Below, one piece after another: positions 18,579 through 41,576 of a stretch of 64,000 bases of DNA. Below the pieces are notes generated by a model. The model saw only the letters and a program-made list of their open reading frames with translations. It did not search any database and had not been told where the DNA came from. The DNA is from Nitzschia sp. pyKryTriq1 (taxonomy: Eukaryota; Bacillariophyta; Bacillariophyceae; Bacillariales; Bacillariaceae), in assembly GCA_956465555.1 (NCBI GenBank), contig OY101115.1, positions 3,882,120-3,946,119 of the forward strand. The letters run 5' to 3'. Every line of letters begins with the position of its first letter. Positions within the stretch are counted from its first letter, which is position 1. A program made the position numbers and the translations under genes.

Positions 18579-20075
18579 ATGACAGGCGCTCTGTCAAGTA
18601 ATCCTTCCCAGCAGACCTCCATCGGTGATGGGGATTGCCTTCCTTCGTTGAAAGTCGACGTGATCATTCCGGTCCACAATGCGTCCAGTACAATCGAGGA
18701 AACCGTCCGTTCTGCTATGGATCAAACGATCCCTCAACATCTGATATCACAACTTGAAAGCTACAAGATGTCTATCACTGTTTGTTGTTACGATGACGGA
18801 TCAGCCGACGAAAGTTGGTCAATTCTCCAGAGACTTGTGGAAGAATTTTCCAATGGGAGCAGTGAAGGAAAACAAAATCGAGTCGCCCCATCATTATTGA
18901 CCCAGAAAAGTTCAGATGGTGTTGCACGTGGAGCTGGTTTCGCTAGAAACAAGGCAGTTGCAATGCAGAACCAGTCAAACGAAAATGGCATTTTACATTT
19001 TCTATGTATGTTGGACAGCGACGATACGATGCACCCTCATCGCGTGGCTGAACAGGTGTCATTCATGCTACGAATGGAACCAGATGAGCGAAGCATGACA
19101 TTACTGGGTTGCAAGTTTGATCGAGATCCTCCAGATTCGACTTGGCACTATAGTCAATGGGCCAACTCACTCGACGACGAACGTCTTCTCCACGAGCGCT
19201 TTCGTGAAGTAACCATCCTCCAACCAACTTGGTTCCTCAGCCGAAAGAGGTTTCTAGATCTAGGAGGATACGTGGAGGCCCCCAAAAATAGGTCCGACAT
19301 GGCCAATTTCTATGATCAAGAAAAGAAAGCCCACAACCGTCTGGTTCATCCATTATATGACACGATTGAAAGTCTTCGGCTCGCCGAAGATTTAAGATTC
19401 TTTCATGATCACCTCGGCTCTAAGGGGACAATCCGTTTACATCGAACAAAAAATGCATTGGTAACCTACCGCCATACTGGAACGTCGCAAAGCTTTCGAA
19501 CCAGTCGAAAGCTAATGCTACAACTCCGTGTTTTGGCTTTGGAAAGAAGTGTCTTACGATCTCAGTGGTTGTGGCAACAGGATGATGGACGCTTTGTCAT
19601 CTGGGGAGCAGGGAGGGATGGAAAGGATTTTTTCAAAGCCTTAAGCGATGATGTACGTCGTCGGGTCTACTGTATGGTGGACGTCGACGAGAAGAAGCTG
19701 GCAGTCGGAAGATATGTGAACCGCGACTTGGCGGCAGATGTCCCGATTCTGCATTTCTCTTTTTTGGCCACTGACGATGAGAAACGCCGTAACATTCAAG
19801 CTGAATGGGAAGTAGGTAACAGTGAGGACGAGATTAAAGGCCGAATAAATAAAGCAAAACCAGACGGTAACAAAGAAAAGGTCCAAAGTCAACCCGCCAA
19901 GAAACGAAAACTGGTCAAGCGGGAGCCCTTGAAGTCTCACGGTCTCGATCTCAGCAAACTTCAGCGACTACCCGTGGTGTGTTGTGTTGCTATGTATCGA
20001 ACTGGCGGGGCACTCGAACGGAATGTTGAGTCAATTGGTCGGAGAGAAGGTTCAAATTTATGGCATTTTAGCTGA
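18579..20075 (+). CDS. QTGAL: Queuosine-tRNA galactosyltransferase (B3GNTL1/QTGAL) homologue
   Basis: 498 residues, one exon, ATG start. The N-terminal half is a GT2 family GT-A domain: DVIIPVHNAS (about 27-36), YDDGSADES (71-79), GAGFARNKAV and the metal-binding LDSDD (145-149). Family-specific blocks follow in the order found in vertebrate B3GNTL1: GCKFDRDPPDST, ILQPTWFLSR, LAEDLRFFHDHL, then FVIWGAGRDGK, VDVDEKKL and ILHF. The very end, GGALERNVES...LWHFS, matches the vertebrate C-terminus. B3GNTL1 is now known as QTGAL, which adds galactose to queuosine at position 34 of tRNA-Tyr. A lysine-rich insert (about 410-455) sits before the last block and may be a nuclear localisation signal. No signal peptide or membrane anchor is seen, as expected for an enzyme acting on cytosolic tRNA. 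Confidence 0.85.
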   Translation: MTGALSSNPSQQTSIGDGDCLPSLKVDVIIPVHNASSTIEETVRSAMDQTIPQHLISQLESYKMSITVCCYDDGSADESWSILQRLVEEFSNGSSEGKQNRVAPSLLTQKSSDGVARGAGFARNKAVAMQNQSNENGILHFLCMLDSDDTMHPHRVAEQVSFMLRMEPDERSMTLLGCKFDRDPPDSTWHYSQWANSLDDERLLHERFREVTILQPTWFLSRKRFLDLGGYVEAPKNRSDMANFYDQEKKAHNRLVHPLYDTIESLRLAEDLRFFHDHLGSKGTIRLHRTKNALVTYRHTGTSQSFRTSRKLMLQLRVLALERSVLRSQWLWQQDDGRFVIWGAGRDGKDFFKALSDDVRRRVYCMVDVDEKKLAVGRYVNRDLAADVPILHFSFLATDDEKRRNIQAEWEVGNSEDEIKGRINKAKPDGNKEKVQSQPAKKRKLVKREPLKSHGLDLSKLQRLPVVCCVAMYRTGGALERNVESIGRREGSNLWHFS

Positions 20076-20107
20076 TACGGGGCGGAGAAAGAAAATTTAT
20101 AGAAATC

Positions 20108-21481
20108 CTATTCATTGGCATGACTCTTCTCTTGAGTCCAGTTTAGTATAAAGTCCAGAGTGCCTCCACCGAACATTATTTCTAAAACCATGTCCGCGTG
20201 TCCGACATCCTCCAAGAGATGCCAGTCCAGTCCACTGACCTCTGCAAAATGTTTCGTACCTGCGTACGGAACAGTAGTATCCATATTCCCGTGCAGCAAC
20301 ATTGTTGAGGTAGGAAAGCGGCCAAGCATTTGCTTTTGCTGTTTATTGTCGGCCGTCCTCAGAATGTATAACGGCGAGGATTGTTTCCAATTGTTGAGGG
20401 TGTAGCCACAGGCTGCTGCCATGGGAGAAATGCGCTGAATCCCTCGTCCTCGCTCAAATCGATAATGGCTTGGAATATCGTACACTCCGGCCATACCTAC
20501 ATATTGGTCCAAGTTGGGGAGTGCCAATCGACCTTCCATAAATGCCATGGTCAGAAGATGGGATCCTGAAGAATGGCCGACGACCGTCATATTTTCGTGC
20601 CTTGTCAGTTGACTTATGCATTCCAAGGCCTGTGCAATGTCGTCCAATTGGCCGTTCAAGTCAGCACTTGGAAAGGTTCGGTAACCGACAAGTGCCACAT
20701 TGGTATACCCCTCATTCAAAAAGGGGGTGGCTGTCAGCGCGTACATGCTTGGGAATCCAGAGCCCCAGGCTCCACCGTGAACAACCACAATCGTTCGATG
20801 TTTCTTCAAGGGTGCATGGGCGGATATTTTTTGTGAGGAGCCAGTCGAGGAAATTAGGGACACGAATTGTCGCTTGTCGGGTCCGTAAAAGTGTCTCTCC
20901 ACGTCAAATTCCAGATCATGCCTGAGACCGACGGAAGACACTCGCTCGATGTTCCACAAAGAGTGGAGTACTCGTTTCGCCATCCGCCCAGCGGGCTGGC
21001 CACTTGACGGTGTAGTCAATCGGAAGAAATCGAAGACCGCCCATGGATATTGGTAAAGGAGACTTGGAATAGCCGTCCATACCAGCGAATCCATAATCCC
21101 CCGCACCACTCCAGAATCACGCATCCAACTCTGAAAACTTTTGGGTACTCGCTGGCGAAAGGATCGAAAGAAGTCGTCGTCGGGGTTGTTGGTCGAAGGT
21201 TTCGGAATTCGAAGAGGCGAGGAGTTTGTCGTTTCGGGTTCTTCCCGAGCCGCTTTCAAGGATCGAGACTGCAGCCGTTGTCGATCATGTCTAGCTGGGC
21301 CTGGGCCTTTGTAATATGACAATGCAAAGGCAGGCCATGTATGACGACCGGTAGTTCCAGCGGGGCTGGCGTGTATCAATAGTAACCCATTTTGTACAGC
21401 GATTCTTTGCAGAATAATCAGCCCAGCCAAGAACCACAATACTGACAATGTGCTTGCAGCGTTTTGTTTCCAGTTTTGCAT
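20108..21481 (-). CDS. Membrane-anchored alpha/beta-hydrolase (ICME-like esterase)
   Basis: 457 residues from the ATG at 21481. One hydrophobic segment near the N-terminus (about 8-26) acts as signal anchor. The catalytic domain covers about 180-450: oxyanion motif VVHGGAWGSG (about 234-243), nucleophile elbow GHSSG with Ser about 304, a late TTVPYAG containing the likely acid loop and DVGHADM with the likely His. HGGAW plus GHSSG places it among carboxylesterases like isoprenylcysteine methylesterase and kynurenine formamidase. The membrane anchor favours the ICME-type group, which demethylates prenylated proteins, but substrate specificity is not provable here. Its stop codon is 32 bp from that of the converging QTGAL gene. 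Confidence 0.75.
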   Translation of the reverse strand: MQNWKQNAASTLSVLWFLAGLIILQRIAVQNGLLLIHASPAGTTGRHTWPAFALSYYKGPGPARHDRQRLQSRSLKAAREEPETTNSSPLRIPKPSTNNPDDDFFRSFRQRVPKSFQSWMRDSGVVRGIMDSLVWTAIPSLLYQYPWAVFDFFRLTTPSSGQPAGRMAKRVLHSLWNIERVSSVGLRHDLEFDVERHFYGPDKRQFVSLISSTGSSQKISAHAPLKKHRTIVVVHGGAWGSGFPSMYALTATPFLNEGYTNVALVGYRTFPSADLNGQLDDIAQALECISQLTRHENMTVVGHSSGSHLLTMAFMEGRLALPNLDQYVGMAGVYDIPSHYRFERGRGIQRISPMAAACGYTLNNWKQSSPLYILRTADNKQQKQMLGRFPTSTMLLHGNMDTTVPYAGTKHFAEVSGLDWHLLEDVGHADMVLEIMFGGGTLDFILNWTQEKSHANE

Positions 21482-22186
21482 GTCATGCAACCCCGTCGTG
21501 TCTTCTTGATATGGAGCGGTCTATCTCATACAGTATCGGCAGCAATGTAAAGCGTTCTCTTGTCAGTACAAGTCCCAGTACGGTACCTGTACCTGTAGCA
21601 GCACAAACATAAACTTAAACGCTCTCTCATTGGCGTTTGGCATTTAAAATAGTAGAATTTGGCATGTGAATAAAAGTTGAGATCTTGCTGCTGGCTGCGA
21701 TGACTGGCGGCGCAAGAGGTAATATGGCCACATTACCTCTTGGGCGGCGTGCGGGGTGTGTGTGGGGAAATAAACGTCGTCGGCATCAATGGATTTTGTA
21801 CCGGTATGATACTGTACGAACATCGGCGCATGTGCTCCTCGCATCTCGAGGTCTCGCGCGCTCCATCCAGCAATCCGGAGAGACAAAGAATACGGAATCT
21901 TACAATCAGGAATTTGGGTTACCCGAGATGGAAATGGTTTGCGATGATTGTCCGTCTTCTTGCTTTATTATGCTTTGCCGAAGTGCCGAGTTGACCATGG
22001 GGCTCCTCCGAGGGATCGGTCTATCGCGAGTAGCCGTGCTGTGTGCTGTAGCCCCGCTGCATCGCGTCCGCGGCAACGGCACCCCTCTACAAACGGCCCA
22101 CCCTTCGCTTTATGCGGCCATCTTGCCTTTCTTCATAGAAGAATCATTTTATTTTGCTCTTTCTGAATTGATATTATTTTTCGACC
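21482..22186. other. Divergent promoter region
   Basis: Between the starts of the esterase (leftward) and the acidic protein gene (rightward). Open frames here have no domain character. It contains two TACCGGTA-like palindromes. No gene is seen. Confidence 0.5.
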
Positions 22187-22217
22187 ATGGCATCTCAGGA
22201 GCATATTGCGATGCTTC

Positions 22218-22248
<31 letters not shown>

Positions 22249-24734
22249 TGACTCCTCGTCGACTACATCCAGTAGCAGTGATGATGATGACGACGATGAT
22301 GATAGCGACGACGATGACTCCTCCTCCTCGTCGTCGTCAGAGGGTGATGGGCCTGCAGTTACTGCGGAAGCGACTGTTATGGTCACACCCAAGAGTGCAA
22401 CTGCAGCGATGGAAGTATCGTCGCCTGCTACGGAAAGGGTTGTGAAGCAGGAAGAATCATCGATCTCTCCCGCCATGCCTGCGAAGAAGCGGATAAAGCT
22501 TGGATTCACTCTAGCAGCCAACAGCAATGTTGAAGACACCGTGAAACTAGATGTGCCGAGCTCGGCGGATATGGAAACGAAGGCCGACGATAAGACATCA
22601 TCTACGTCCTCTGATTTGCCAACGGTGGAGGCAAAGCCCATCCCTACACCATCATACTATCATGAGTCTATGAGCACGCACGTCACGTCATCTCTTCCTC
22701 TTCGTCTCAAGAAGAAGTTCAAGCTCCCGCCTCACAAGGCTATCATGGAACGAGCTTCTACCGAAGGAACAGACATCACCGACGATGTTGTTGTCAAAGC
22801 CACAGTTGTCGAGAGCGACGACGGTGGGGAAGATGACGCAGTCGCAGCAGTTGTAGAAAAACCAGTTCCTATCAAGCCCAAGTCCTCGACCACACCTCAC
22901 GCAAGAGGAACCTCTGCCTCCCCCACATCTGGTGCGAGACAACAGCGGCGGCAAGCCAACACTGGTATAAAACCAGTCCGTCTCCCTCCCATGTCCTCAC
23001 CTGGCCTCCTTGTCAGTGTTGGGCCTGGACCGTTCCGTGAAGTCGCCAATACTGCCACAGGCCTAGCAACTCCAGGCGCGATCTTCGACCATACCATGGC
23101 TGCTGCGGGCTATACCACTGAAAACAGATCCAAGAAGCCGCATCGGGGGTCCAGCGTCAAGAGAGTGATTGACGATATGTTTGAACCCAATGTCAAGTTT
23201 TGTCTCGGCTATCCACCTCTGGTACCCGAAGATCTAATCCCTCCTTTTAGTAGTGATGCTTCTGCAAACGGTGGGCCTCGGCTCTCGGATCGCCTCTTGA
23301 AAGCCTTTCGGCCGACTCGAGCACATCCGCCAGGATCGGGGCTGTCGAATGGGATGGGTGCCGACACTGGTATCAATAGTAATAAGACGGCTGAAAAGAG
23401 AAGGAAACGAAAACTACCAGGATTTATGGAAATGGCGCCCTTGTCCTTGACAATCCCTTATCCAGAAGAATACATTCAGAAACGGCTGGAGTACATTGAC
23501 AAAGTCAATGCACGGTAGGTTTTTCTTTTGTCGTCATCAATTTCTTGGACGACTGAAGCATTATCTCACCATGTTTCTCTTTTTATTACACACAGTGAAA
23601 AGGCTATTGTGGCATATCAAGAAGAAGAGCTCAGATTGCACAAGGAAAAAGATCGACTCGAGATGGCTGGGAAGTCCGTTCATGATAACTTTTTGACCCC
23701 ATCTATCGTGATCCCTCCGCTTCCGGAACCACCAAGCGCTCCAAGACTCCGTGGAATTGATGGATTTGATCCAGAGGCGTTTGAAGACCACCATCCTATC
23801 TATCTTCCCAAAACTGGGGACCTATCATTGGTAGCTCACTTGGATAAGGCGTGCTTTCATGTCGTAGATGGAAGATACTTTGGATTGTCAAGTAATTCCG
23901 TTGCCGACCCAAATTTTGTGGGACCAAATGCACCAGGTTTGGCGGGTTTAAGCCTTTCAGGGGGTACAGGATTGGCAACCGCCAACTCCGGCGGGGGTGG
24001 CTCTGCTGGTTGCACGTTGTTATCCGCGCCTTCTCAGTCCGGGGCCTCCGCGAACGCGAATGCCAAGCCGAGAACGAAGGACGCTGCAAAAGGAAAGGAT
24101 ACGGAGAATGGGAAGACAACTGGAAAGTGCAAGGATGGTAAGGCTGTAACAAAGACAAAATCAGGTGAAAGGTCCTCAACACCAGCCAAGAGCACAACCG
24201 GCAAGATCTCGAAAGTGCCGGCTTCCTCGCCGAATTCTGGCACATCTCCACCGAAGAAGAGTAAGGCAAACGGACCACCAGTAAACGCTTCAGCGGCCGA
24301 TCTCCGAAAAATTATGGAAGATGGCGGCGATGATACAGAGGCGATGAAAACGTGTATTATTCGAGCAGCAGTCTATGCAAGTCGCTGTGGGAAGCACACG
24401 CGGAGTTTTCGGGCGCCAAACACCATGGTCTACCCTGACATCAGCAAGGCATTTGCAGTTCATGCTGGCGTGAAACCCTGTGAACGATGCAAGAACAATA
24501 AGCAAGGGGTGAGTTTTCCGATTCTTCGGATGATTCTTGAATTTCTCGATACTGGTATTGCCTCATCTCACTTAACCATTTTCCCACTGACAGGCCTATC
24601 ACTGTAGGTTGCGGCGGAAGCACAAAGAACCCGATTACGATGGAAGTGATAGCACCGCAGTACTTGGGCCTCTATTCAAAGTGCCGATGGAGGAGTTGGT
24701 GATACGAGTTATCAAAAAGAAGCCGGCCACTTAG
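22187..24734 (+). CDS. Acidic Asp/Ser-rich nuclear-type protein with C-terminal Cys cluster
   Basis: Three exons (22187-23514, 23596-24508, 24594-24734) with introns of 81 and 85 bp, 793 residues. I do not recognise the family. Residues 8-50 are almost only Asp and Ser, encoded by a GAC/GAT and TCC/TCG microsatellite. A basic KKRIKLG stretch (about 98-105) could be a nuclear signal. The centre holds a conserved-looking block (LPGFMEMAPLSLTIPYPEEY into a charged helix across the first intron), then PSIVIPPLPEPP. A Gly/Lys-rich linker leads to the C-terminal module: a helix around CIIRAAVYASRCGKH, CERC and YHCRLRRKHKEPDYDG, a possible zinc-binding set. The splice sites are supported because the frame and the Cys cluster are restored across both. 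A chromatin or transcription role is a guess from composition only. Confidence 0.75.
22214..22345 (+). repeat. Coding GAY/TCN microsatellite
   Basis: Trinucleotide-rich tract encoding poly-Asp and poly-Ser at the start of the acidic protein. The codons alternate between GAC and GAT, which suggests an old, partly interrupted expansion. Confidence 0.85.
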
Positions 24735-24917
24735 GTCGAAGGTGATTGGCTTTGTTCTGTACTTGCGGTAACGGTAATCTAGCTAGATATTTGGTGGTGC
24801 CTCTTCTATCAACACGTTGGTACTTTTGACTGTGATGCAGCAATCTAGTATAGCAGTGCAGGACACAATTGCCAGAGAGAGGAGAGCTGCTATCTGTCGT
24901 TCCCTTTACCGGAACAC

Positions 24918-26612
24918 TTAGGCGGTCGCACATGCGGAAGCTGCCAAAGCCTTGGCAAAACTTAGCAAAAAGTCTATGGCAGAGGTCGAGGCTTCGAAAA
25001 ATTTCTCCACATCGAAGTCTCCTCCAAGGGACTTCACTCCATTCATCCCTGTTGAGCTTGTCTGGTGCTGTTGTTCCAGCAACGTGTGGATCAACTCGAG
25101 CGGAGTGCTAGGAGCAAAACAACCCATTAGTTTGTATTCATAAAGCGTCACATTTTGCAATAATTTATGGAGAGCATCGGGAGAAGAGTATCGAGACGAC
25201 AATCCTGCTTCCATTGCCCGCACTCTATTGATACAACGTTCCTTGTTCTCGATTGTCTGAATCAACCGATCTCTCATCTTGAGCGAGCCCTGGACCAATC
25301 GAGGGGCTTCAGGTCCAGCAGCACACACAAATGCACGAACACGTCCCAATGCTTCCTTGCCCTCGCACCATTTCAAGAGCAGTTCAGGCACTTCAAGATT
25401 GACCTTTTCATGAGAAGTTTTCTGGTGATTTTCCAGAATCTCGACCAACGCCCGAATCGTGGCCCCTGTCAAGACATCGATCCTAGCATTGAACTTTTCG
25501 ACGAGCGCCAAGCGTGCGATCCATCCATCGATTCCTTGTTGATTTGCCAAAGCTTCAGAGCGTTTGTCGAGTATTTGACGATCCTGGTCAAGCCACTGTG
25601 AAGCACGCTTCAGCTCCGAGACCAACGAAACAACTTCTTCAAAATTCTCCAAACCGTCAATCGTGTCATTGTCATTGACTTGAAGTCTCGCATTGGTAAC
25701 AGCTTGTGCCGCCTTCAATTCTTTCTCGAAGGATCCCGTCGACAAGTGCAAGCCAGTTCTACCACGCTCGAGTTGCAGTGCATTCACCAGATCGAGTCCT
25801 TGCAATACGCAAGAACCAGCTTTACCAAGACTTGCTAGAGTCGACGGGCTTCGTCGATGAGTGGCATTTTTTGTTTTTTGTTTCTTTGTTTGACTTTCTT
25901 GTATTTCTTCTTCCAGATTGTCAATGAGTTGTTGTAAAAGATGCGGTCGCTCGTCCAAGTACTGTACGACGGCTTGCGTCAAGAAGGATCTCCAATGACC
26001 CGGTGCTCGGCGAACCAGTGTCGATGAAAAATGAGGAAGCTCTCCATAAATAAAATCAATCTCCAAATCCAACTGATCCGCTACTCGTCGCAGTTTCACC
26101 TCGTCCAAAGGCTCTTGAATGAATCGATTTTGAGAGCCGGATCCTTCAGCGTCTTCTTCATCTTGGTCTGCTTGCTTATGCAATCTTCGTTGAACAATAA
26201 GACCCGAAACTTCTTGCAGCGTCTCAATACCCTTAGGTCGGTCCATCCATCGAATAAAGTCATCTCCGCAAATCCACAAGAATCTCGTCCCTTCCGGATA
26301 CTTTTTCTTGAGTGCTTTCAACATTTCCCCGTTGGAAGCGCCGACCTCTTCCTCGATCGTGGAAACGGACAAGGCATCTCCAAACGAAGCTATCGCCAGC
26401 TCGCACATCCGGACTCTATCCTCAAAGGGCAAGAGGTTTCGTTTGACGGCATGCTTGTACACTGGCACTAGTACGACTTCATCGACCGCCTTGGTTTGCT
26501 GCGTCGTAATGGCTAAAAGTGCATGACCCAAGTGCACTGGATTGAAACTACCTCCAAACACACCGATCGTGAGGGGTCGTGCCTTGCTGCTACGGCTGAC
26601 ACCAGTCGCCAT
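24918..26612 (-). CDS. NMNAT/NadD-type adenylyltransferase fused to a NIT (nitrate/nitrite-sensing) domain
   Basis: 564 residues in one uninterrupted frame from the ATG at 26612; the frame extends 39 codons further upstream without an ATG. The N-terminal 230 residues are a nucleotidyltransferase of the NMNAT/NadD family, which makes NAD or its deamido form from the mononucleotide and ATP. The HxGH signature is GGSFNPVHLGH (20-30), with a CGDDF block (about 115-119) and the late SSTLVR (196-201) that replaces ISSTxxR. A charged linker (about 235-255) follows. Residues about 265-558 resemble the all-helical NIT domain of bacterial nitrate/nitrite receptors: LVNALQLERGRTG, then FEKELKAAQAVTNARL, GKEALGRVRAFV and a final helix ASTSAIDFLLSFAKAL. 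The NIT match is from memory of the family pattern. No targeting peptide is clear from the chosen start. Confidence 0.8.
   Translation of the reverse strand: MATGVSRSSKARPLTIGVFGGSFNPVHLGHALLAITTQQTKAVDEVVLVPVYKHAVKRNLLPFEDRVRMCELAIASFGDALSVSTIEEEVGASNGEMLKALKKKYPEGTRFLWICGDDFIRWMDRPKGIETLQEVSGLIVQRRLHKQADQDEEDAEGSGSQNRFIQEPLDEVKLRRVADQLDLEIDFIYGELPHFSSTLVRRAPGHWRSFLTQAVVQYLDERPHLLQQLIDNLEEEIQESQTKKQKTKNATHRRSPSTLASLGKAGSCVLQGLDLVNALQLERGRTGLHLSTGSFEKELKAAQAVTNARLQVNDNDTIDGLENFEEVVSLVSELKRASQWLDQDRQILDKRSEALANQQGIDGWIARLALVEKFNARIDVLTGATIRALVEILENHQKTSHEKVNLEVPELLLKWCEGKEALGRVRAFVCAAGPEAPRLVQGSLKMRDRLIQTIENKERCINRVRAMEAGLSSRYSSPDALHKLLQNVTLYEYKLMGCFAPSTPLELIHTLLEQQHQTSSTGMNGVKSLGGDFDVEKFFEASTSAIDFLLSFAKALAASACATA
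24939..25820 (-). other. NIT-like sensor domain of the fused adenylyltransferase
   Basis: Coding segment for the helical C-terminal half. The opening helix carries the LQxERGxT pattern and the middle helix the KEAxGxxRA pattern, the two places where NIT domains are most conserved. It contains no membrane segment, so any sensing would be cytosolic. Confidence 0.7.
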
Positions 26613-27218
26613 TGGATTGATTGATAACGTCGTCTGGCTGGGCTGAGTGGGGTTAGAGATACGGTATGGAAATAGTGGGAATGAAATGACAACGAGAGCG
26701 ACGAGAGAAAGTGCTAAAGTACAGGACAAGAAGTAGAGGAAGATCGCGAAATTCGAAAAAATAATAATGCCGGCAGCAGTTTGCGTCGGCCGGTCGGAAG
26801 GCGTATCCTTCTGGTCGCTGTCATGACCGCGCTGCGCAGTTCGCCGGTCGGAGCTTGGTCGGAGTAGTCATTCTTCCAGCAAACCGTCCATGTCGCATAC
26901 GACATTCAAATTGAAACGCGTGTCGTCGTTTTCTTCTGTCTTCACATACCGGTACCGGTACTGCGTAGAGGTTGATGACATTTCAATTTCTTCTTCATTT
27001 TTACCATATCCATACTTTTTGTTCGTTATTCTTTGATTTGATGCTTTGATGCTTCCTATTCCTACTTTCTGATTGTGCATTGTTCCTTCGTTTCAGTCGT
27101 TGACACTCTGTATTGCAAGCAATCTCATTTAAACCTATCTTGTTTCGCTGATATTGTACTCCAATTGTACTCCAATTTCCAGTTCGAGACTGATTTTTCG
27201 CTGTCTGGAACAGCGACC
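26613..27218. promoter_or_regulatory. Divergent promoter of the NMNAT-NIT gene and a membrane protein gene
   Basis: 606 bp between two ATG codons pointing outward, so both promoters lie here. A perfect ACCGGTACCGGT core lies near 26949. No TATA element can be claimed. Open frames in the stretch look non-coding. Confidence 0.5.
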
Positions 27219-30200
27219 ATGGACGAAGAGGAAGATGACTCGTGGATTCCTCTGACGCCGACTGCCACAGCGGAAGAATCATCATCATCAGCTGCGGATG
27301 ATAACGGTACGGTACCTGAACCACATACTCGAGGTAGTATCACGAATATGCATACAAGTGCTGCCGGAAGATCACAGTCCAGTCGCGGCAGATCTTCTGC
27401 CGGTACAAGTACAAGCAACCGCACAGCTCACCAGCAGCAGCAAGACACTCGTAACCTTCAGCAACGTCTGGAGGCGCGGATCCGTTTGAAATCGAACTTG
27501 GTGGATCACCCGATTGATTTGTTCTGGAAGCGATATCTAGTGAATCTAGCGCAAGAAGTATGGGCTCTGGAATGGCACATTCGATTGGGGCTTTGTATGT
27601 TGATACTGGGGATCACCACCAAAGTCTTTTTGCTTTCCACGTGGTATTTCTGGTACCCGCGCTTTGTACTTGTAACCATGATTTTGGTGGCTGCGACACT
27701 ATATCTTGATGTGTTCGGTTTCCAGCAGCGATTCGACAATCTTGGAAAGCTATTGGTGTCACCCGAGACTGTGCTGCAGCTCATCCAACAGCTCGACTCG
27801 ACAGGGATACGGCGACTGGCGGTGGTGCTTTTATTGATACCGACAGGGTTAGAAATGCGAACCTTGTCATTTTTGTCGGGTATCAAAGCAGAAACAGGCT
27901 GGAGTCTTTATAACCTGCTGCTATCATCCAGTCTGTTAGGCCTGATGATGTACTGGTTCCGCGTCCAGCATATCAAGCCCCGAGAGTGCTTGTACCGGGG
28001 GCTCCTGCTGCTATATGGGTCTGCACTCTGGGTCACTATTTATACTACCAACTTATCTCGTCTACCCATTCTGGCAGCTCCTTTTTTGACAGCGACCGGC
28101 ACGATTATGATTACGTATCAAGACGATGACATGGAATGGGTGTCAAGGGTCTTGCGTCATGCACTTCGACTCGCCCTGAGGGACGTCCTCTCGTCCATGG
28201 GAGAAAAAGTGACCGAAGATGAAATGCTACAGCTGGCCATATTGCGCTGGATTGCTGACTATTGGGCCTCAGCACCAACAACCTCCGCTCCCGACTCCTC
28301 GTCCAGCTCATCCGAACGACCTGCTGCGCATCAGTCGGCACCAAGTAGAACATCGGGTACAGCAGCATCAGCTGCTGGTTCTGCTGGTTCTACGTCAAGT
28401 TCGGGCAGTGCCACGGGCCGTGCTTCAGGATCTTCTACACCAACACCACTTCCACAAACAAGTAGTTTCACCGGATCACAGCGACGATCTGCCTCTGCCA
28501 TTTTCCAACGAAGACACGACGTTTCCTGGGAAGAGCTACTTCCCATGCTCAATGTGGCTACAGAACATATGACATCGGAAGTTCAAATGCTTCAATCCAA
28601 CCCTCAAACAATGGGCGCTGTCCCCAATTTCGGTACCCCACCTCGAAGGACCACAGAACCCTCCACTGGTCCTATTGATAGCTTCCACGACATGTTGCGG
28701 GCCCTGAATGTAGACGAACGTGCCGAACCGGCAGTCAGAGCCTACAAGCGAGCCGTGGAATCCTTTCCACCCAGTCAACAAATGGCGGTTCTTCTTTCCA
28801 TCTTGAGGCGATGCCCTGCTTTTCTGACTATCCTGTTCCATATCGTCATGGTTAAACCTGGCGTATTGTCTTCGACAATGGTCCTGCTTCCCTTTGTGGT
28901 CATGGAATATCATCGTATCATGGCCTGGCTTCATTGCTGCGAGCAAGTCAAGGTCTATTTTGACACCGTGGAAGAGCCCGAGGGGTCGACGTCTGACAAT
29001 AGTCGAAAGTTCATTCCAAGTGCGTTGAGAGATGCAGATCCTATGGTCATTCTATTGGTCGGTGACTCGTACAATCCGCTTCGACCACCCGCACTCCTTC
29101 TTGTTTGGCGAAATGTTGCCAATTCAGTGTCAGCTCTAGAAGTGGGTTTGACGGCCGCTCGATGTGCCGAGACGACCGCCGTGGCTGTGCAATTTGCTGG
29201 CAATGTCATGTCACTAGTTCAGTTTGGTCAGGAAATTCATGAACATGGACTCCTTCACGGTCTTTTGGTCATGGGCAAGGAAGCAATCCTGATGCACACT
29301 ATGGACGAAAGCGTACGGGACCGAGAGTCGACAAAGTACACACATGCTGTCATGGGTGCCATGGAGAATGCACAACGTGTGGCTCGAAACGTGCAAACTC
29401 TTGCCCATGATGACAAGATTGGTCATGTTATCCAGCCAGTAGTTTGGGCCGCATGTTCGTTGAGTGGGTACGGCTGGCTTTGGGGACGGGAAACGCCGCC
29501 TGACGCATCATCGTCATCCTCGGAGGAGATGACGAATGATAGGGCCACCTCAGTTCCACAAGAATCATGGGCGACTGAGAAAAAGTCGATGGACGAGACA
29601 CCGGAAGATCAATCGAGCAGTGGAGCTACCTCACCCGACATTGCGCAGACAGGAACAATACCAGAGGGACTAGACCAACTTTCTGACTTGATGGAAGAGA
29701 TTGTGGAAACATATGGAGATGGTCAAGTTAATGAGGTGCGTTTTCTTTCTCGGCCTCTCTTTGGATTGAAAAGTGCAGTCTTGTTGTTTTCTCACTCTCT
29801 TTGTAAAAATAGGCTCAAAAGGACGAATTGTGCGAACGGCTGTCGCATGTCTCAGGTACCGATTCCTCGGCCGTACGTGACATCAAGAAGGCGTTGGCAG
29901 AATTTGTGAAGAAAAATGAGAAGAGCAAGGAACCCCCTTCGGCTGATGAGAATAAGGAACGTGTCCGCTCAAGTGCAGTGGTGGAAATGGTGCTGGCGGC
30001 GTACTATCGCGGCCTCATTGATCAGGTGAGTATGTGGCCGTTTCTATTCAATTAAAGAAGGTGAATACGTGCACATGTGTATTGACCCCTTTTGAAATTC
30101 CCCATGACTGGAAACCCAGCAGACGGAAAAGGCTGCCTTTTGTCAGAGGGTGGCTAATCTTAGCGATGAGGAACGAACCGACCCAGCAGTTGTGGGGGGC

Positions 30201-30752
30201 ATGATCCGTACATTGACAGCTATCCTGGAACAGGGGCATACCATCGATGAAACCACTGTCGTGGAAAACAGCTCGCATCAAGTGGAAGGACACGAAAAGA
30301 CCAAGGATAGAATCATCATCGAAAACGAGGAAGCATCACATAGCAGGGCAGCAGAAGCAGTTGCAATGGACGAAATACCCACAACAAGTGCGAGCGAGAT
30401 TCCTTCCTTCGCACAACAAGCCGATGGGGAGCAGTCACACAATGAGCAACAACCACTTTACGGGACAGCGCCAAATACTACGAGTGATGCGGAGACTCGC
30501 CCAAGTACACAGAGCAGAGAAAATCCACACGACGGATTAGTCCGTTTGGGAATGGCAACGCTGAGCTTCGTTGTTGGCGGCGTCTTGCTTTCCCGGAATG
30601 GCGCAAATGATGAACAGCAAGAGCAACGCAGTGATCAGGGAAGTCAAGATTCGGCGAGCAGGAACGAGACCACCGGTATCGGCGGATCAACAGTCCAAAT
30701 TGAGGAAATTGAAGATGATGTGGAAGAAGAATGGGTGTCTGTTCCACAATAA
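27219..30752 (+). CDS. Unknown multipass membrane protein
   Basis: Three exons (27219-29735, 29813-30025, 30120-30752), introns of 77 and 94 bp, 1,120 residues. I do not recognise the family. After an acidic, Ser/Gln-rich N-terminus come about six hydrophobic helices between residues 125 and 320, a Ser/Thr/Pro-rich loop (about 355-440), a mixed soluble and hydrophobic region (about 510-760) and a disordered acidic tail. One more hydrophobic helix lies near the C-terminus (LGMATLSFVVGGVLL). The second intron ends in CAGCAG, so the exon may start at 30120 or 30123, adding or removing one Gln. The start is the first ATG in a good context after a long leader. Location and role are open; peroxisomal or ER membrane are both possible. 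Confidence 0.75.
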
Positions 30753-30780
30753 TGATTTCTACTATGTATAAGATGATTTT

Positions 30781-32576
30781 TTACAAGTCTGCCGAGTTCC
30801 GCCATACGTCGATATCGCCGTTTTCAACGAAATATTCCGCTCTGATATGGTTTTCTTCTTTTTGACGCTGCTGGAAGAAGGGATTGTCTCCCGCCTTGGA
30901 GTACTTGGGACAATCGTAGCAGCCTTTCTGGGGGCACTGCGAGGAGACCAAGCACTTTTCCTTCAGAGTGTGATACCAAGACGTGCGATGATTATTGTCG
31001 CTGTCGATACCAGCAACGTAAAGAGGTGTGGGACCCCGCCTGTGGCCAAGGTGCTTGTGGTCATCTCTACCGTCTCCCTCGTCTCGAGCTTTTTCGAATT
31101 CCTGTAGCTCTTTGTAGGATACCGGATGCATGCAGTCGACAGGGCAACTAGTTACTGCCTGCTTGACATCAGGAGTATGGCGCTGGTCAAACGTTCGTGC
31201 CCGGCCACTCTCTAACATTAGAAAGGAGTCCGGCGAGATATTGACACATTGCGCACACCCAATACAAGATTCCTCATCAATAAAGACTGACACGGCGGGA
31301 ACATGTGAGTGGCAAAACGAGGGTAAGACCGTTATTCTTCATTGCTCAACTCATTCCCATTGCACGTACCGAAATCTCCATCCCGTACCCACAAAGGTGT
31401 GTTGCTGTTGGGTGCCATTTCTACCATTTTGTGGCTGCTCATCGACCCACTCGCCGACATCCGATCCTCTGGATTTGCGCCAGCTCCCTTTTCCGAATAG
31501 TCCCATTCCAAAATCTCGCATTCGTCCATGATAGTGTTGGCTTTTACGGCATGGGTTGGACCTTTGAGCTTGAGCTGTTCTGCCAACTGTTTCCGTTCCT
31601 GCTCGATTGGAGACAAAATTCCGTGGTTGCGCAAGTCTCGCCATACAGCATCCACATAAGGCTGCCGAAGAGCCAGGTGGCGCTCCCAAGTCACGTTTTC
31701 ATTCGATCTGACTCCAGCAATAGTCATTAGGTAGAGTTTTTCAAAATCTTCCTCCAAAAGTCGCCCACTTCCATACGAGCTAAATTCCGACAAAGTTTTG
31801 ACAACCCGGCTATCGTGAGCACTGACTCGTCGTTCCTCCGTCTTCAATGCAGTTGTCATCCAGTTGGCCACTCCTTTTCGATCCAAGCAAAGGGCTCCAT
31901 CCACAGGATCAGGAGTAGCATGCATATAAAAAAGTTTGGAAGCCGATTCTTTCAGAAACGCCGTGGGACGGACTGAATTCCCCTGGATGGAAACTAGTTG
32001 AATGACATTATTTCGTTCACTCTCTGTCAAAGGCGCCAGCGCCCTTCCCTCGGAAACTAACAAGTCTTCCGGGTGTTCATTGCAGCGAACGAGCATGGCA
32101 ATTTCATTGCTCATATCATCAATTTCATTTGACGTAGTGTCCGATTCGTCAAAACTGGTATCGTACAACGGGACATGTTCCTCGTCCAAAGTCGCGAACG
32201 AATTGTGAATCTCGTCCACCATGGAGCTGATCCAGCGATCTTCTTGGGACAAAACCACGTCGACACTAGCCGCCTCGAATTCTCGGGCGGCGTTCCACGC
32301 CAAATCTTGGTTGTACAGCTCCTCGCTGTCTGGAGTCGAATCTCGCTCATTCTCTAGGGAGAGCAGCGACCAATTATCAGCTTCAGACCAAGTGGAAGAG
32401 GAGGAGCCACTGCCACTGCCACTGCCACTGCCACTTTCAACGCCGTTAACAGTGGACTGGCGTGCTACGATTATCGGTGCAGCTCTTCTTGTTGCGAATG
32501 GCGACAACCACGCACTCGTACTGCTCAAAGATAACGATGTGCCGAACAACAGAAGAAGTGTCTTATTCAGGCTCAT
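30781..32576 (-). CDS. Plastid-targeted 4Fe-4S ferredoxin-domain protein
   Basis: Two exons on the minus strand, 31370-32576 then 30781-31286, separated by an 83-bp intron, 570 residues. It starts with a signal peptide (MSLNKTLLLLFGTSLSLSS) that ends at TSA-W, a permitted variant of the diatom plastid ASAFAP motif, and a Ser/Gly-rich transit stretch. A long middle region (about 90-395) has no domain I recognise. The C-terminal exon encodes a ferredoxin fold, FIDEESCIGCAQCV and SCPVDCMHPV, supplying cysteines for a 4Fe-4S cluster. A further Cys cluster follows, CLVSSQCPQKGCYDCP, preceded by TPLYVAGIDSDNNH. Splicing directly restores VFIDEE, the usual ferredoxin start. The stop codon is 28 bp from that of the converging membrane-protein gene. 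Confidence 0.82.
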
Positions 32577-35701: not shown

Positions 35702-37303
35702 CTACCAGCTTTGTCTCCACCACCACTCCTTATTCAAATGATTGTTGTTTCAGCTGAGGCCTTCTTCCAGCTACGCAAGACTAGTCTATTCGTAGCTACT
35801 CTACTACTAGTAGTAGAGCTACGAGAATAATACAACGGTTGTATAAAAAGACTCAATACTCGTCATACGACTCACAATCTCATAATCGCGTGCTTTTCCC
35901 GTACCGCTACAAGCTTGGTACAAGTAGACTACCGGTACCTGTACCGGTACAATTTTACCATCGTGATACTCGCAACTATCGCTTCGTTTTACTACGGAGG
36001 GCTGAGACAGAATAACGCGTGCATTTCTCGTATTTCATAATACGAGAATACCAAAATAATAAGCGTGCTTTTCTCGTGCTTCATAATAAAATAATAACAA
36101 AATAATAACGCTAACATACAACATACTAAAACGCGTGCTTTGCACCTGCATGATGACATTCTTACAGTATTCCTATTCGTAATGCGTGCTTTTCTCGCAC
36201 TATGCATGATGACAAAAAATTAACGCGCAATTTTATTGGTAGTAGTCTACTAGTAGTAGAGTGATAATCAAATTGAGAAGTTGCTATAAACTGACAGCGT
36301 GGACAGACAGCGGATAGCTGGTCATCGATCCCGCCTAAATTTTGCAAGTCCAAAATGAACAGCCAGACCGGCGACTCTAACTTTTGACGCCGCAGTCGGA
36401 CAGTGGCCAAACTTGAAACTATGCATTCGAGAATACTAATAACATCAAAAATATGAAAAGAATGGATCAAAACGGACTAATAGCCGAAAAGCTACTACAA
36501 TTCTAGCTAGCCATCGATCGCGCCCAAAAATTGAAAGTCTAGGAGAGTAGTAGTAATCGTGTACCCGTATCCAAAAATGTATGCTCGTACGCATCTATAA
36601 AACTACTGCTATTTTTCCTCTTCTTCCTTGCCTCGATCTTCGCCCTTTTCCTCTTGCTTGATGTGGCCTATTCTCTCTAGTATGTAGTAGAGTAGAGTCG
36701 TCTACTCGTACGCACGGGTATCAAAATAATGCCGCGCAGCAGAATGCGCTTTGGGGGTCATATTCTTCCTTCTTTTTATGAGAAGCGAGCAGTTGTATTT
36801 TGCGATATTATTAGCGCGGTGCCAGTTGTATTTTTAATGAAATTATACAACTCCGAGTGCTACTTTTGGTTGTATCTCGTACCATTTCGTGCCAGGCGCC
36901 AATGTGACATTACACGAGAGCGAACCTATTCCATCGCATGGTGCGCGCACGTAGACCGCGTGGGCATGCTACCAGGAAGTATGTACTACTTCGGTTGTAT
37001 TTCCGGGGTAATGTAGGTGTACTCGTAGACCAACTTCAAACCTGCCTGGCGCTTGGCGATGATCGGCAGCCAAAAGAACACGCAAAACGCGTGCCGCGTG
37101 CAGGCGAGTATCATACGGTTTCAGTTTTATCGCTTGGGTTGTGCATCGCATCGAACCGCAACTCTCCATCTTTAAAATCTACTCGTAGTCTACTAGCTAC
37201 CGGTAGAGTAGTTCTGGAGGTTTGACCAGTCGAGAGATTGATTCAGTCATCATTCAAAGTTCACGGACCCACCCTCCCAATTTGCCAATCATTTTTCAGC
37301 CGG
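35702..37303. other. Long intergenic stretch with repeats
   Basis: About 1.6 kb without a convincing gene. It contains clusters of ACTAGTAG and ACCGGT palindromes (35800-35950, 36238-36258, 37180-37210) and a set of CGTGCTTTTCTCGTGCTT-like repeats (35885-36211). Near 36290-36380 and 36505-36545 two similar phrases occur around ATCGATC. The F-box gene promoter should lie at the right end. Confidence 0.5.
35885..36211. repeat. Dispersed CGTGCTTTTCTCGTGCTT repeat cluster
   Basis: Degenerate copies at about 35885, 36015, 36063, 36131 and 36181, separated by AT-rich CATAATAAAATAATA spacers. Same family as at 14638-14733. Confidence 0.75.
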
Positions 37304-38683
37304 ATGAGCATTCCGACCATGCCGTACAAGTATCCGCCGCCAATTTTTCTTGGTTCGTTTGATAGCTGGGACGAGTTGTATGATTATATGGCTGTCTACG
37401 GTGTTCATCTGCTTTTTGGAGCCCTTCTCAGTGCCGTCACCATTTACAGACGGGAAATGAGCTGCAACCGAGTGTTCCACGTCGACGAAGAACCGAAAGA
37501 AGCACGAGAAGGAGAAAGAGAGCCTGCATCTCCAGATAATTCAATTATATCGGACGAAGTCGAGGAGGAAACGGATGCGCTGTTGGATTCTGCAGGCAGA
37601 TTCTGTGCATGTCAGCCTATTATTCACTGGGCATCACTGTGGATGGACTCGTTCCCCTGTGATGACAAAGACGGCAACGAGACAATCTTTCTGGCTAGAC
37701 TTTTGCAGGAAGACGTGACGCCAACCGACCTGTTGGAACGAGCTGGTAATTTTTGGTCTCCCGAGCCCTTCATGGCGGCCATGGCCCTATTTTTGTATCA
37801 GCAAAACAAAAAGGTTGCAGAACCTGCCAAGGGCGAAGCCTACGACCCCTTTACCAACCACCTCCCTCCGGATGTCCATGTGCATATCACTTCATTTCTT
37901 CACCCGAAAGATGTTCTATCGCTGTCATGCGTTTCTCGGACTTATCGATCCGTAGTGGATGAAAGCGACACCTCCCGGGCTATCTGGCGGACTCTCTGGG
38001 AAAGAGACTATGCTTGGGTGGTAAATGTCTGGCCTGTCGGAAAGGAAGCCCTGCGGCGTTCCGTACTTGAAGGGCCCTTTGTTGTTGACAAAGACTTTTA
38101 TTTTAGCTTTGGACAAGCCTACCTCAATTACATCCTAGCAGGTAGAAACACAAATTCTGACTGCATGGTGGGGCTTCATTGTCACACCTACGACATCACA
38201 TCCTTTCTGGACACCCACCCGGGCAGTCCTGACACACTCATGGTACATTCGGGAAAAGATTCCACTCGCTTTTTTGAAGACATGGGCCACTCTTTAGTAG
38301 CTCGACGACTCGCGAGGAAGCTCTGTGTCTTGGTCGACTTGTCGCAACTCAGCCGCGATGGTTGGGGTCTTCGACCTACCGAGTATACGAATCTAGGAGG
38401 AGACGGAGACAACAAGTACGTTCAACAAATCCCATCGCGATTCCCTGGAGCTGGAGAGAATCTATTGCTCGGACGTAAACAAATAATGCGTGGAGGAACG
38501 TTAAAGCGGATACGTACAAAACTGGAAAGTGAATTGGTGCACCTGGATCGTCATTTGAAAATGCAGTTTGGTAATGACCAATCGGTGTTGGGCAATGTGA
38601 ATCCTTACTACGACCCGTTTCGACGAGAATGGCGGATCTGGTACACGAACACGAACCTTGAAACAATATTTGGTCCTGCTTGA
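37304..38683 (+). CDS. Membrane-anchored F-box/cytochrome b5 fusion protein
   Basis: 459 residues from the ATG at 37304; an acceptor-like TTTTCAG lies just upstream, so an additional 5' exon is possible. A hydrophobic helix (about 28-48, VHLLFGALLSAVTIY) near the N-terminus suggests a membrane anchor. An F-box follows at about 185-235: HLPPDVHVHITSFL, LSLSCVSRTYRSV and IWRTLWERDYAW. F-boxes dock substrates to SCF ubiquitin ligases through Skp1. Then comes a cytochrome b5-like haem domain: HTYDITSFLDTHPGSPD and FFEDMGHS. Its two axial histidines are at residues 305 and 329, exactly 24 apart as in classical cytochrome b5. HPGG is changed to HPGS. The gene converges on Mog1, 193 bp away. Confidence 0.82.
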   Translation: MSIPTMPYKYPPPIFLGSFDSWDELYDYMAVYGVHLLFGALLSAVTIYRREMSCNRVFHVDEEPKEAREGEREPASPDNSIISDEVEEETDALLDSAGRFCACQPIIHWASLWMDSFPCDDKDGNETIFLARLLQEDVTPTDLLERAGNFWSPEPFMAAMALFLYQQNKKVAEPAKGEAYDPFTNHLPPDVHVHITSFLHPKDVLSLSCVSRTYRSVVDESDTSRAIWRTLWERDYAWVVNVWPVGKEALRRSVLEGPFVVDKDFYFSFGQAYLNYILAGRNTNSDCMVGLHCHTYDITSFLDTHPGSPDTLMVHSGKDSTRFFEDMGHSLVARRLARKLCVLVDLSQLSRDGWGLRPTEYTNLGGDGDNKYVQQIPSRFPGAGENLLLGRKQIMRGGTLKRIRTKLESELVHLDRHLKMQFGNDQSVLGNVNPYYDPFRREWRIWYTNTNLETIFGPA

Positions 38684-39570: not shown

Positions 39571-40103
39571 TGTTGAGTAAACTGGTCGGACACCGACCAT
39601 ACCAAGGTATGAAGGCAGTATACATACATATGATCTATGGTGGTATGAGACATCAACGTAAGAAAGAAAGATATTGTCTATCGACCAACCATTATTTGGA
39701 GAAGAAACAAGTGAAACGTGAAACAAGGAAGATATCATCGGATAGGAACATAAAAATTTAATAATCCGATTTGCATGAAATATCAGATCGCAGTGGACTA
39801 TTGCAACAATCAAGTGGGTATCTTTATTGGATTCCAGATTAGTTGTAAATAGCCACTTGCTTCAACATTATTAAATTTTTATCGCGTGGATATGGTAGAA
39901 CAACCATCCCAAACGCCCAGCAGCCAAGGTGGCGGCGGGTACGGCGGCGGTCGTATGAATAAAAGACGCCCAACCGTAACACCTCCGAACAAACAACGAA
40001 CTGTACCACCGAACAAGAAGTTCGAGGGCAAAACTGACGACATTAAGAATGATGTCTACGATACCTCCGAGAGTCGCCAGGCCGACCAATTCCTCCGAAC
40101 CAC
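39571..40103 (+). mobile_element. Copia-type (CoDi-like) LTR and gag remnant
   Basis: Fossil. A possible LTR spans 39571-39867: it opens TGTTGA and closes TCAACA, a six-base inverted pair typical of LTR ends. Next comes the start of a gag-like reading frame from about 39892, with PNKKFEGKTDDIKNDVYD and SRQADQFLRTT, which resembles gag of diatom Copia elements. The remnant stops where a piggyBac-type sequence begins at 40104. Only the left part survives; no polymerase is present. It is broken. Confidence 0.5.
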
Positions 40104-40615
40104 CTCAAATGGAGTCAAACAGTGGCGGAAAGTTACAGCGGGGTATCTGCTTGCTTGGTTTGGCATACTATTACTACAAGGTGCCTATAAAATACGATAC
40201 TCTGGTCTATTTTGGGTTTCGTCCCCTTATGGGGTTGATGTTCCTTTTGTACGGAATACCATGACTTGTGATGCTTTTCTACAAATCCAGCATTCACTTC
40301 ATTTTGTGGACAACGACCACATCTACCCAAAAGGACATTCCAAATACCATCCCCTACAGAAAATCAAACCATTTATCGATGCAGTAGCGAAGACTCTTCA
40401 AGCAGGTTGGAATCTTGGTGAAAAAATATGCATCGACGAAAGTATGATCAAGTATATGTATATTACATGCTTTACGATGTCGATTTGCTCTGATAATGAT
40501 GACAATAGGAAGCGAGAAGTTGAAGTGTTACTGTCGACGTGTTTTGATTTTTGTGTTGCGGCGCACAAAAAAAGCGCGTGGGCTGAAAAAGCCCACGTCG
40601 GTGTGAAACGGTTAA
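40104..40615 (+). mobile_element. piggyBac-type element fragment (copy B)
   Basis: 512 bp that are the reverse complement of 41577-42088. It encodes the N-lobe of a DDE_Tnp_1_7 (piggyBac) transposase: WRKVTAGYLLAWFGILLLQG, QIQHSLHFVDND, LQKIKPFIDAV and ICIDESMIKYM (first catalytic Asp). It ends with GGTGTGAAACGG followed by TTAA at 40612-40615, the piggyBac target. A subterminal hairpin GTGGGCTGAAAAAGCCCAC lies at about 40578-40596. The other end of this copy is missing; it abuts the Copia remnant. Confidence 0.8.
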
Positions 40616-41576
40616 CATTGCCTGTGTTAGGTATTAAACGTATGGCTGTACTAAAGTATGGGATCCTTCGCGTGGACCGCGCGTGGCCTGGTACAAAACT
40701 CAACGCAGAACTCCGTACAAAATTTGGTTGAGCTGATTTAATTGTCTGGCAGCGGCCAGACTGCGTGATAATTCTCCGTGATGATCGAGTTTTCAAAAAA
40801 TGAGAGATAGCCGTATTAATTTTGCACTGCGGTAGCGCAAAACGCGCTGATCACGATGGTAGTAAAATACACGGCTGTCTCGCCTTCATTTGTTGGTTAA
40901 AGAATAAAACAAATTAACACGTGATTTTGACGCGCTAAAATGCGCAGAATTTCGGTGGTAGGACAGACTCCTACCAGGTTTTACGTGCGCTACTACGCGT
41001 TTTCGCGCTTTTGGTACAGCCATAATGCTGTTAGTCGGTATATTATGACGTTTTTCTGACGTTTTTCAGACGACCAGTAGGAGTCAAGTATGTTGACACA
41101 TTTGATTCAAGAGTGAGTCTTTGCAGCGATGCTTGATAATTATTTTGTTGTGGTTGAGACTTATTAACATTGCCTTTGTTAGGTATTAAACGTAATGCTG
41201 TTCAGTCGGTATATTATGACGTTTTTCCAGTAGGAGTCAAGTATGTCGACACATTATTTGATTCAAGGATGCTTGAACACCCAGGGTTAAAAAATTGCCT
41301 GCTCGTACGGCACTTATTAGTAGTAGGTACCGGTACTGCGGTACGTACAGCAGCGGGCGAACCCATCATCGATCTCGAGCGAGGAAGCATCGCCAAGCGG
41401 GGAGCTGAACCCGAACTCCTCGTCAATGATCAAACTAATTGTAGCTGCCTGCAACACGGTATTCCCGGTGTATGCCCTTAATTAATATGTCGACATGCTG
41501 TACCGGTACGGTACGTGTACGGTACAGTCGTCGTCCCTCTTTGGCCGGTAAGAAATTGAACCGTGTAATAATAATT
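40616..41576. other. Spacer between piggyBac copies
   Basis: Holds related direct repeats (separate entry) and a run of GTACC/GGTAC palindromes at 41325-41535. A 103-codon frame at 41170-41481 shows no domain. No gene is called. Confidence 0.5.
41022..41275 (+). repeat. Two diverged direct repeats, with a third partial copy at 40612
   Basis: 41022-41135 and 41190-41275 share AATGCTGTT-AGTCGGTATATTATGACGTTTTT and GTAGGAGTCAAGTATGT-GACACA (dashes mark small differences). The flank TTAACATTGCCTTTGTTAGG at 41164 matches the sequence right after copy B at 40612 with one mismatch. Confidence 0.75.

What the first reader, a model, noticed from the sequence alone, without database searches (positions are those of the whole stretch)
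24918..26612. NAD-biosynthesis enzyme fused to a nitrate/nitrite-sensor (NIT) domain
One uninterrupted reading frame encodes an NMNAT/NadD adenylyltransferase (GGSFNPVHLGH, SSTLVR) followed by a helical domain with the LQLERGRTG and GKEALGRVRA patterns of bacterial NIT domains. NIT domains are known on receptor kinases, transcription antiterminators and cyclases, where they detect nitrate or nitrite. I know of no NIT domain on an NAD-synthesis enzyme. Inference: nitrogen status may set NAD(P) supply directly, sensible in a diatom whose nitrate reductase consumes NADH. The domain has no membrane helix, so it would read cytosolic nitrate.
Basis: partly seen in the sequence, partly recalled or inferred. 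Interest (0 to 1): 0.88.

Follow-up and report, generated by a model that had tools for sequence, protein, structure and literature searches.

The report
NAD-making enzyme with nitrate-sensor domain
A gene of a eukaryotic microbe, probably an alga, joins an enzyme that makes the coenzyme NAD to a domain of the kind bacteria use to sense nitrate, which suggests, but does not prove, that nitrate could directly set NAD production.

Summary
Window 24918-26612 (minus strand) is one uninterrupted 564-codon frame. Residues 15-221 are a NadD-type NaMN/NMN adenylyltransferase with its catalytic signatures intact. Residues ~264-559 are a divergent NIT domain: Pfam PF08376 above its gathering score; hhalign against 65 bacterial NIT domains prob 96%, E 1.8e-9, 222 columns, 100 shuffles at most 1.3%; still detected without the LQxERG helix. 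The AlphaFold model's two best PDB matches are the NasR chains of 4AKK, but that model leans on bacterial NIT rows. Arginines matching NasR R50, R115 and R176 are kept.

That nitrate controls NAD synthesis is inference. A NIT domain that binds neither nitrate nor nitrite is known (PMC6381276), and the window has Val where NasR has E175. No paper with both 'NIT domain' and 'adenylyltransferase' is in the library, and no NadD-NIT fusion lies in 60 bacterial genomes; but other eukaryotes could not be searched, and the one survey of eukaryotic NIT domains known to me was not held. Verdict: real, apparently new domain combination; mechanism plausible, unproven.

The parts
24918..26612 (-). whole CDS, 564 aa plus stop, one uninterrupted frame
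25950..26570 (-). NadD-type nucleotidyltransferase domain, residues 15-221
   Evidence: PF01467 E 1.2e-13; TIGR00482 E 2.7e-26, 92.8 bits, below its 112.45 cut-off; solved nicotinate-nucleotide adenylyltransferases by sequence
26523..26555 (-). GGSFNPVHLGH nucleotide-binding signature, residues 20-30
   Evidence: G20, G21, F23, P25, H27, H30 invariant against 10 prokaryote NadD stretches
26010..26027 (-). SSTLVR signature, residues 196-201
   Evidence: S196, T198, R201 invariant against 10 prokaryote NadD stretches
25827..25907 (-). charged linker, residues 236-262, no Met
   Evidence: translation; codon score like the rest of the gene
24936..25823 (-). NIT domain, residues 264-559, no strongly hydrophobic segment
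25761..25778 (-). NIT helix 1 core LQLERG, residues 279-284; R283 matches NasR R50
25578..25580 (-). R345, matches NasR R115; Arg in 69 of 69 bacterial NIT domains (not part of the search pattern)
25332..25358 (-). NIT helix 5 KEALGRVRA, residues 419-427; R426 matches NasR R176, V425 matches NasR E175
   Evidence: PMC7496416 passages

Best explanation
The gene makes a two-part, probably cytosolic enzyme: a NadD-type adenylyltransferase (ATP + nicotinate or nicotinamide mononucleotide to (deamido-)NAD + pyrophosphate) with a C-terminal NIT domain that regulates it. Most likely the NIT helical bundles bind a small oxyanion, nitrate or nitrite being the first candidates, between the arginines R283 and R426, and the resulting helix shift or change in packing raises or lowers adenylyltransferase activity, so that NAD production follows internal nitrate. 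Shown here: the frame, both domain identities, the kept catalytic and binding-site arginine residues, absence of a strongly hydrophobic segment. Inferred: enzymatic activity, ligand, direction of control, cell compartment.
For: Pfam NIT above gathering score; hhalign match along the domain E 1.8e-9 with shuffle controls, also without helix 1 (prob 78%, E 1.7e-5, 100 shuffles at most 1.75%). AlphaFold model pLDDT 80.6, pTM 0.82; Foldseek ranks 4akk_A and 4akk_B (NasR) first, prob 1.00, TM 0.61/0.57. Arginines corresponding to NasR R50, R115 and R176 kept; R176 was predicted to lie in the nitrate pocket (PMC7496416 passage). NadD signature residues invariant against 10 prokaryote NadD stretches. 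Maximum hydropathy 1.42 over 19 residues, whereas 63 of 69 pattern-selected bacterial NIT domains lie between strongly hydrophobic segments: it would read the cytosol, as NasR does (recalled).
Against: No binding or enzyme data, no orthologue, no transcript. Identity to bacterial NIT domains only 15-22%. NasR E175, whose alanine mutant no longer bound RNA (PMC7496416), corresponds to V425 (E in 60 of 69), and the near-invariant His of helix 1 (64 of 69) is N277. The NIT domain of PA4520 bound neither nitrate nor nitrite (PMC6381276). The structure model depends on the bacterial NIT rows: single-sequence folding failed (pLDDT 41.7), and no Foldseek match reached E 0.001. A single-sequence search of the PDB did not find NasR. 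TIGR00482 score is under its equivalog cut-off.
Confidence: 0.45

Rival explanations
1. The C-terminal part is a true NIT-fold regulatory domain, but its ligand is something other than nitrate or nitrite (another anion, a metabolite of the NAD pathway, or a protein partner).
For: Some NIT domains do not bind nitrate or nitrite (PMC6381276 passage; PMC13343842 passage). V425 and N277 depart from the usual NIT residues.
Against: The arginines matching NasR R50 and R176 are kept.
Confidence: 0.33
2. The NIT-derived domain has lost sensing and serves only as a dimerisation or scaffold module for the enzyme.
For: Strong divergence, 15-22% identity; NasR is a homodimer (PMC7496416 passage).
Against: 21 of 47 conserved positions outside the search motif are kept, 10,000 shuffles mean 3.3, maximum 10 (the alignment included the window, so this is biased upward), among them the two arginines R345 and R426, which a mere scaffold need not keep.
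Confidence: 0.15
3. Artefact: two separate genes or an assembly or read-through product.
For: No transcript and no orthologue could be checked.
Against: Uninterrupted frame, similar codon use and GC3 in both halves, coding-like linker, no in-frame ATG between residues 123 and 446.
Confidence: 0.05
4. Chance resemblance of a coiled helical region to NIT.
For: All-helical domains can give spurious matches; the single-sequence PDB search found no NIT structure.
Against: Shuffled and reversed controls score near zero; Foldseek puts NasR first and second of 202 matches.
Confidence: 0.02

Closest known systems
NasR (Klebsiella oxytoca, PDB 4AKK), NIT-ANTAR antiterminator
   Same: NIT domain without membrane segments (recalled for NasR); LQxERG helix and helix-5 arginine R176 kept; best structural match
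   Different: Output is an RNA-binding ANTAR domain, not an enzyme; NasR E175 is V425 here; NIT is N-terminal in NasR, C-terminal here
Bacterial membrane NIT receptors (63 of the 69 NIT domains collected here have strong hydrophobic segments on both sides)
   Same: NIT domain homology
   Different: Between hydrophobic segments, so probably extracytoplasmic; the window protein has none
NIT proteins of pelagophytes and dictyochophytes (PMC9481584)
   Same: NIT in photosynthetic stramenopiles, partly intracellular
   Different: In Pelagomonas joined to protein kinase domains or flanked by transmembrane segments, no NAD enzyme described; that survey reported homologues restricted to pelagophytes, dictyochophytes and one putative cryptophyte transcriptome
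Animal NIT guanylate cyclases (PMC7400543, PMC1592074)
   Same: NIT fused to an enzyme in eukaryotes
   Different: Receptor cyclase, NIT flanked by membrane helices
Bacterial NadD (TIGR00482)
   Same: Catalytic domain and motifs
   Different: No sensor domain in the NadD known to me; window scores 92.8 bits, below the 112.45-bit cut-off
Nmnat1-Rbp7 fusion of zebrafish (PMC4664474, title and abstract start in a search listing only)
   Same: An NMN adenylyltransferase fused to another domain in a eukaryote
   Different: Nmnat1 with a retinol-binding protein, no NIT

Membership tests
NIT domain (PF08376) | Profile score above the curated gathering score | tested here: met
   29.7 bits (whole protein) and 32.5 bits (C-terminal part) against 24.9
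NIT domain (PF08376) | Homology along the whole domain, not only helix 1 | tested here: met
   hhalign 222 columns E 1.8e-9; without helix 1 E 1.7e-5; Pfam itself aligns only profile positions 1-97 of 239
NIT domain (PF08376) | Arginines invariant in the 69 bacterial domains (NasR R50, R115, R176 positions) | tested here: met
   R283 (column selected by the search pattern), R345, R426
NIT domain (PF08376) | NasR-like double helical-bundle fold | tested here: met
   Foldseek top two hits 4akk_A/B, prob 1.00, TM 0.61/0.57, E 2.4e-3 and 2.8e-3, none under 0.001; model built with bacterial NIT rows, no independent model obtained
NIT domain as nitrate/nitrite sensor | Binds nitrate or nitrite | not testable with these tools
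   needs a binding assay; NasR E175 position is Val here
NadD (PF01467 nucleotidyltransferase, NadD branch) | Profile score and G-FNPxHxGH / SSTxxR signatures | tested here: met
   PF01467 51.9 bits against 21; signature positions invariant in A2
NadD equivalog TIGR00482 | Score above the 112.45-bit equivalog cut-off | tested here: not met
   92.8 bits; in 5 of 60 bacterial genomes no match reaches it either. Therefore called NadD-type, not certified NadD

The most novel reading that the evidence does not exclude
A core NAD-biosynthesis enzyme of a photosynthetic eukaryote carries its own cytosolic nitrate/nitrite sensor, so that nitrate allosterically sets NAD supply without any signalling cascade: the first NIT domain regulating a metabolic enzyme directly.
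Probability: 0.4. Interest if true: 0.85.

Novelty: new variant of a known kind. Interest (0 to 1): 0.62.

Why it matters
Diatoms and related algae live largely on nitrate, and nitrate reductase spends NAD(P)H (established knowledge). How they sense nitrate internally is, to my knowledge, poorly understood. An enzyme with a built-in nitrate sensor would be a direct, biochemically testable link between nitrate and redox cofactor supply, and would extend NIT domains from signalling proteins to metabolic enzymes.

Tried and rejected
Considered and rejected: two genes or a spliced junction; chance helical similarity. A combined NadD+NIT alignment for a fused-profile search failed, because MAFFT laid the NIT rows over the NadD half (A3); it was not used. 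Using open-frame length of NadD hits to screen for fusions was uninformative, because the frames run upstream of the start. Single-sequence AlphaFold gave no usable model (pLDDT 41.7). A single-sequence PDB search with the C-terminal part gave only two chance-level matches (E 0.54 and 1.3). Relatives of the window NIT part: none in plasmids, phages, viral contigs or genome contigs (a search that reaches close relatives only). The NadD part gave one distant relative in viral contigs, L123, 25% identity. A NIT motif scan of viral contigs gave one hit, L002, which looked non-NIT by eye. No whole genome is held for the window, so a second copy or a eukaryotic-type NMNAT in the same organism could not be looked for. 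No Rfam family matches window 20000-32000. Monteagudo-Cascales et al. 2023 (Mol Microbiol 119:739, on NIT domains in eukaryotes) is not held; only its title was seen, in reference lists, so it may already list this architecture.

Full report
What was checked. The finding's coordinates are exact: window 24918-26612, minus strand, holds a single frame of 564 codons from ATG (26612) to a stop (24918-24920). Both halves and the linker resemble the codon usage of nine other long frames in the window (0.23, 0.20 and 0.19 bits per codon for NadD half, linker and NIT half, against -0.03 to 0.08 in the two other forward frames of each half and in the three reverse frames of the gene), and GC3 is 0.50 and 0.49 in the halves. 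Met occurs at 1, 69, 97, 123, 446, 467, 496 and 523 only, so the NIT part has no in-frame start codon of its own. The window looks like nuclear eukaryotic DNA: among 20 frames scanned with Pfam are mitochondrial carrier, P450, F-box and CCCH zinc finger proteins and a transposase; no tRNA gene was found. 'Diatom' is plausible but was not proven; no whole genome is held for the window.

The enzyme half. Pfam CTP_transf_like, residues 18-184, E 1.2e-13. The best NCBIfam model is TIGR00482 (NadD), residues 18-221, E 2.7e-26, but 92.8 bits is below its 112.45-bit cut-off. Among solved structures matched by sequence (25 distinct sequences at E up to 1), those with the lowest E-values are named nicotinate-nucleotide adenylyltransferase; the rest include phosphopantetheine adenylyltransferases, an uncharacterised protein and one outer-membrane protein at chance level. 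The listing names no organisms; that the NadD entries are bacterial is recalled. Against ten NadD stretches that I picked from the matches in 60 genomes, invariant positions include G20, G21, F23, P25, H27, H30, R66, D118, S196, T198 and R201. I therefore call it NadD-type and expect it to be active; activity was not tested.

The C-terminal half. Pfam NIT scores 29.7 bits in the whole protein and 32.5 alone (gathering score 24.9), but aligns only profile positions 1-88 or 1-97 of 239. phmmer of this part over PDB sequences did not find NasR. 117 of the 118 had the motif in a frame longer than 150 residues; a stricter filter on the surrounding residues kept 69, and 48 were dropped without further test, some of them evidently NIT too by eye. 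All 69 match Pfam NIT (70 of 70 members, window included). A profile from these 69, without the window, hits the window's C-terminal part with 36.6 bits in three collinear stretches; the best of 1000 shuffles scored 5.9. Profile comparison with 65 of the 69 (left out: L044, L049 and L077, cut off by locus ends, and L111, whose frame stops early) gives prob 96.3%, E 1.8e-9, 222 columns; 100 shuffles reach at most 1.26%, and the reversed sequence 0.1%. Without helix 1 (residues 312-564) it still gives prob 78%, E 1.7e-5, 100 shuffles at most 1.75%. So the similarity runs along the whole C-terminal domain, not only the LQxERG helix.

Binding-site residues. In alignment A1 (70 sequences) the invariant columns are L279, Q280, E282, R283, G284, R345 and R426. 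LQxERG was selected by the search pattern and carries no weight; R345 and R426 were not. The NasR chain was aligned to the A1 profile (E 4.3e-55; the profile holds the window and 69 bacterial rows). PMC7496416 (passages) names Q174, E175 and R176, which fixes the offset of the chain numbering at 27 (my inference); on that numbering R426 is R176, R283 is R50, R345 is R115 and V425 is E175. [quoted passage not shown] E is present in 60 of 69 bacterial sequences at the V425 column, and His in 64 of 69 at N277. The site is thus kept in its arginines and changed in its surroundings.

Structure. With the 69 bacterial rows, AlphaFold gives pLDDT 80.6, pTM 0.82, nine helices; Foldseek over the PDB ranks 4akk_A and 4akk_B first (prob 1.00, TM 0.61 and 0.57, E 2.4e-3 and 2.8e-3), next an alpha-catenin fragment at E 0.1, TM 0.31 (50 of 202 matches were shown). 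No match reached E 0.001. The model leans on the bacterial rows; with the window sequence alone prediction failed (pLDDT 41.7), so the fold evidence is not independent of the sequence evidence.

Architecture survey. 63 of 69 bacterial NIT domains have a strongly hydrophobic segment (19-residue hydropathy above 1.6) on both sides; of the six exceptions three are cut off by locus ends (L044, L049, L077) and one frame ends early (L111). The window protein peaks at 1.42, in its last helix. tblastn of the NadD half over the loci then held (L001-L123) matched L123 and the E. coli nadD locus L001, and in the NIT loci only one 52-residue piece in L109 at E 0.93, taken as chance.

Known context. NIT domains in eukaryotes are known: extracellular parts of animal guanylate cyclases (PMC1592074 passage; PMC7400543 passages) and kinase-linked or membrane forms in pelagophytes and dictyochophytes (PMC9481584, one section and passages; expression in PMC12054182, passage). 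In what I saw of these, none is on an NAD enzyme. 'NIT domain' with 'adenylyltransferase' gave 0 papers; of the 3 papers none holds both 'NIT domain' and 'nicotinate-nucleotide adenylyltransferase'. The broader searches held 270 to 2,025 papers each, of which only the 10 to 20 listed were looked at; none of those listed described the combination in the title and abstract start shown. Monteagudo-Cascales et al. 2023, whose title announces NIT domains in eukaryotes, is not held. PMC4217691 (one section and passages) reports that eukaryotic nicotinate-nucleotide adenylyltransferases form a branch separate from bacterial ones; the window enzyme looks bacterial-type by its best matches, so gene transfer is possible, but no tree was made.

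Mechanism. The best reading is an enzyme with its own sensor. By analogy with NasR, where NIT is proposed to hold the output domain in an off state that nitrate releases (PMC7496416 passages), NIT may inhibit or activate the adenylyltransferase through packing. The ligand is the weak step: PMC6381276 (passage) found that the PA4520 NIT domain binds neither nitrate nor nitrite and suggested that NIT subfamilies differ in ligand. My estimate: NIT identity 0.97, one protein 0.93, nitrate or nitrite control of enzyme activity about 0.4-0.45.

Noticed in passing
window 39886-40731 (+) and 41482-42270 (-): Two transposase fragments (piggyBac-type, recalled) in opposite orientation that share 170 identical residues; the first matches Pfam DDE_Tnp_1_7, E 9.1e-15. 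Looks like an inverted duplication of a mobile element.
   Followed up: partly
window 37238-38683 (+): One frame with both an F-box and a cytochrome b5-like domain, a pairing unusual to my knowledge.
   Followed up: no
window 43116-45564 (+): Histidine kinase split over two overlapping frames: HisKA in the first, HATPase_c in the second, probably an intron between them.
   Followed up: no
window 26613-26729 (-): The frame stays open upstream of the ATG and would read as a hydrophobic stretch from a TTG; there is no in-frame ATG, so it is probably 5' untranslated, but a missed upstream exon could add a targeting signal.
   Followed up: partly
window 59030-61003 (-): Protein with three CCCH zinc fingers.
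   Followed up: no
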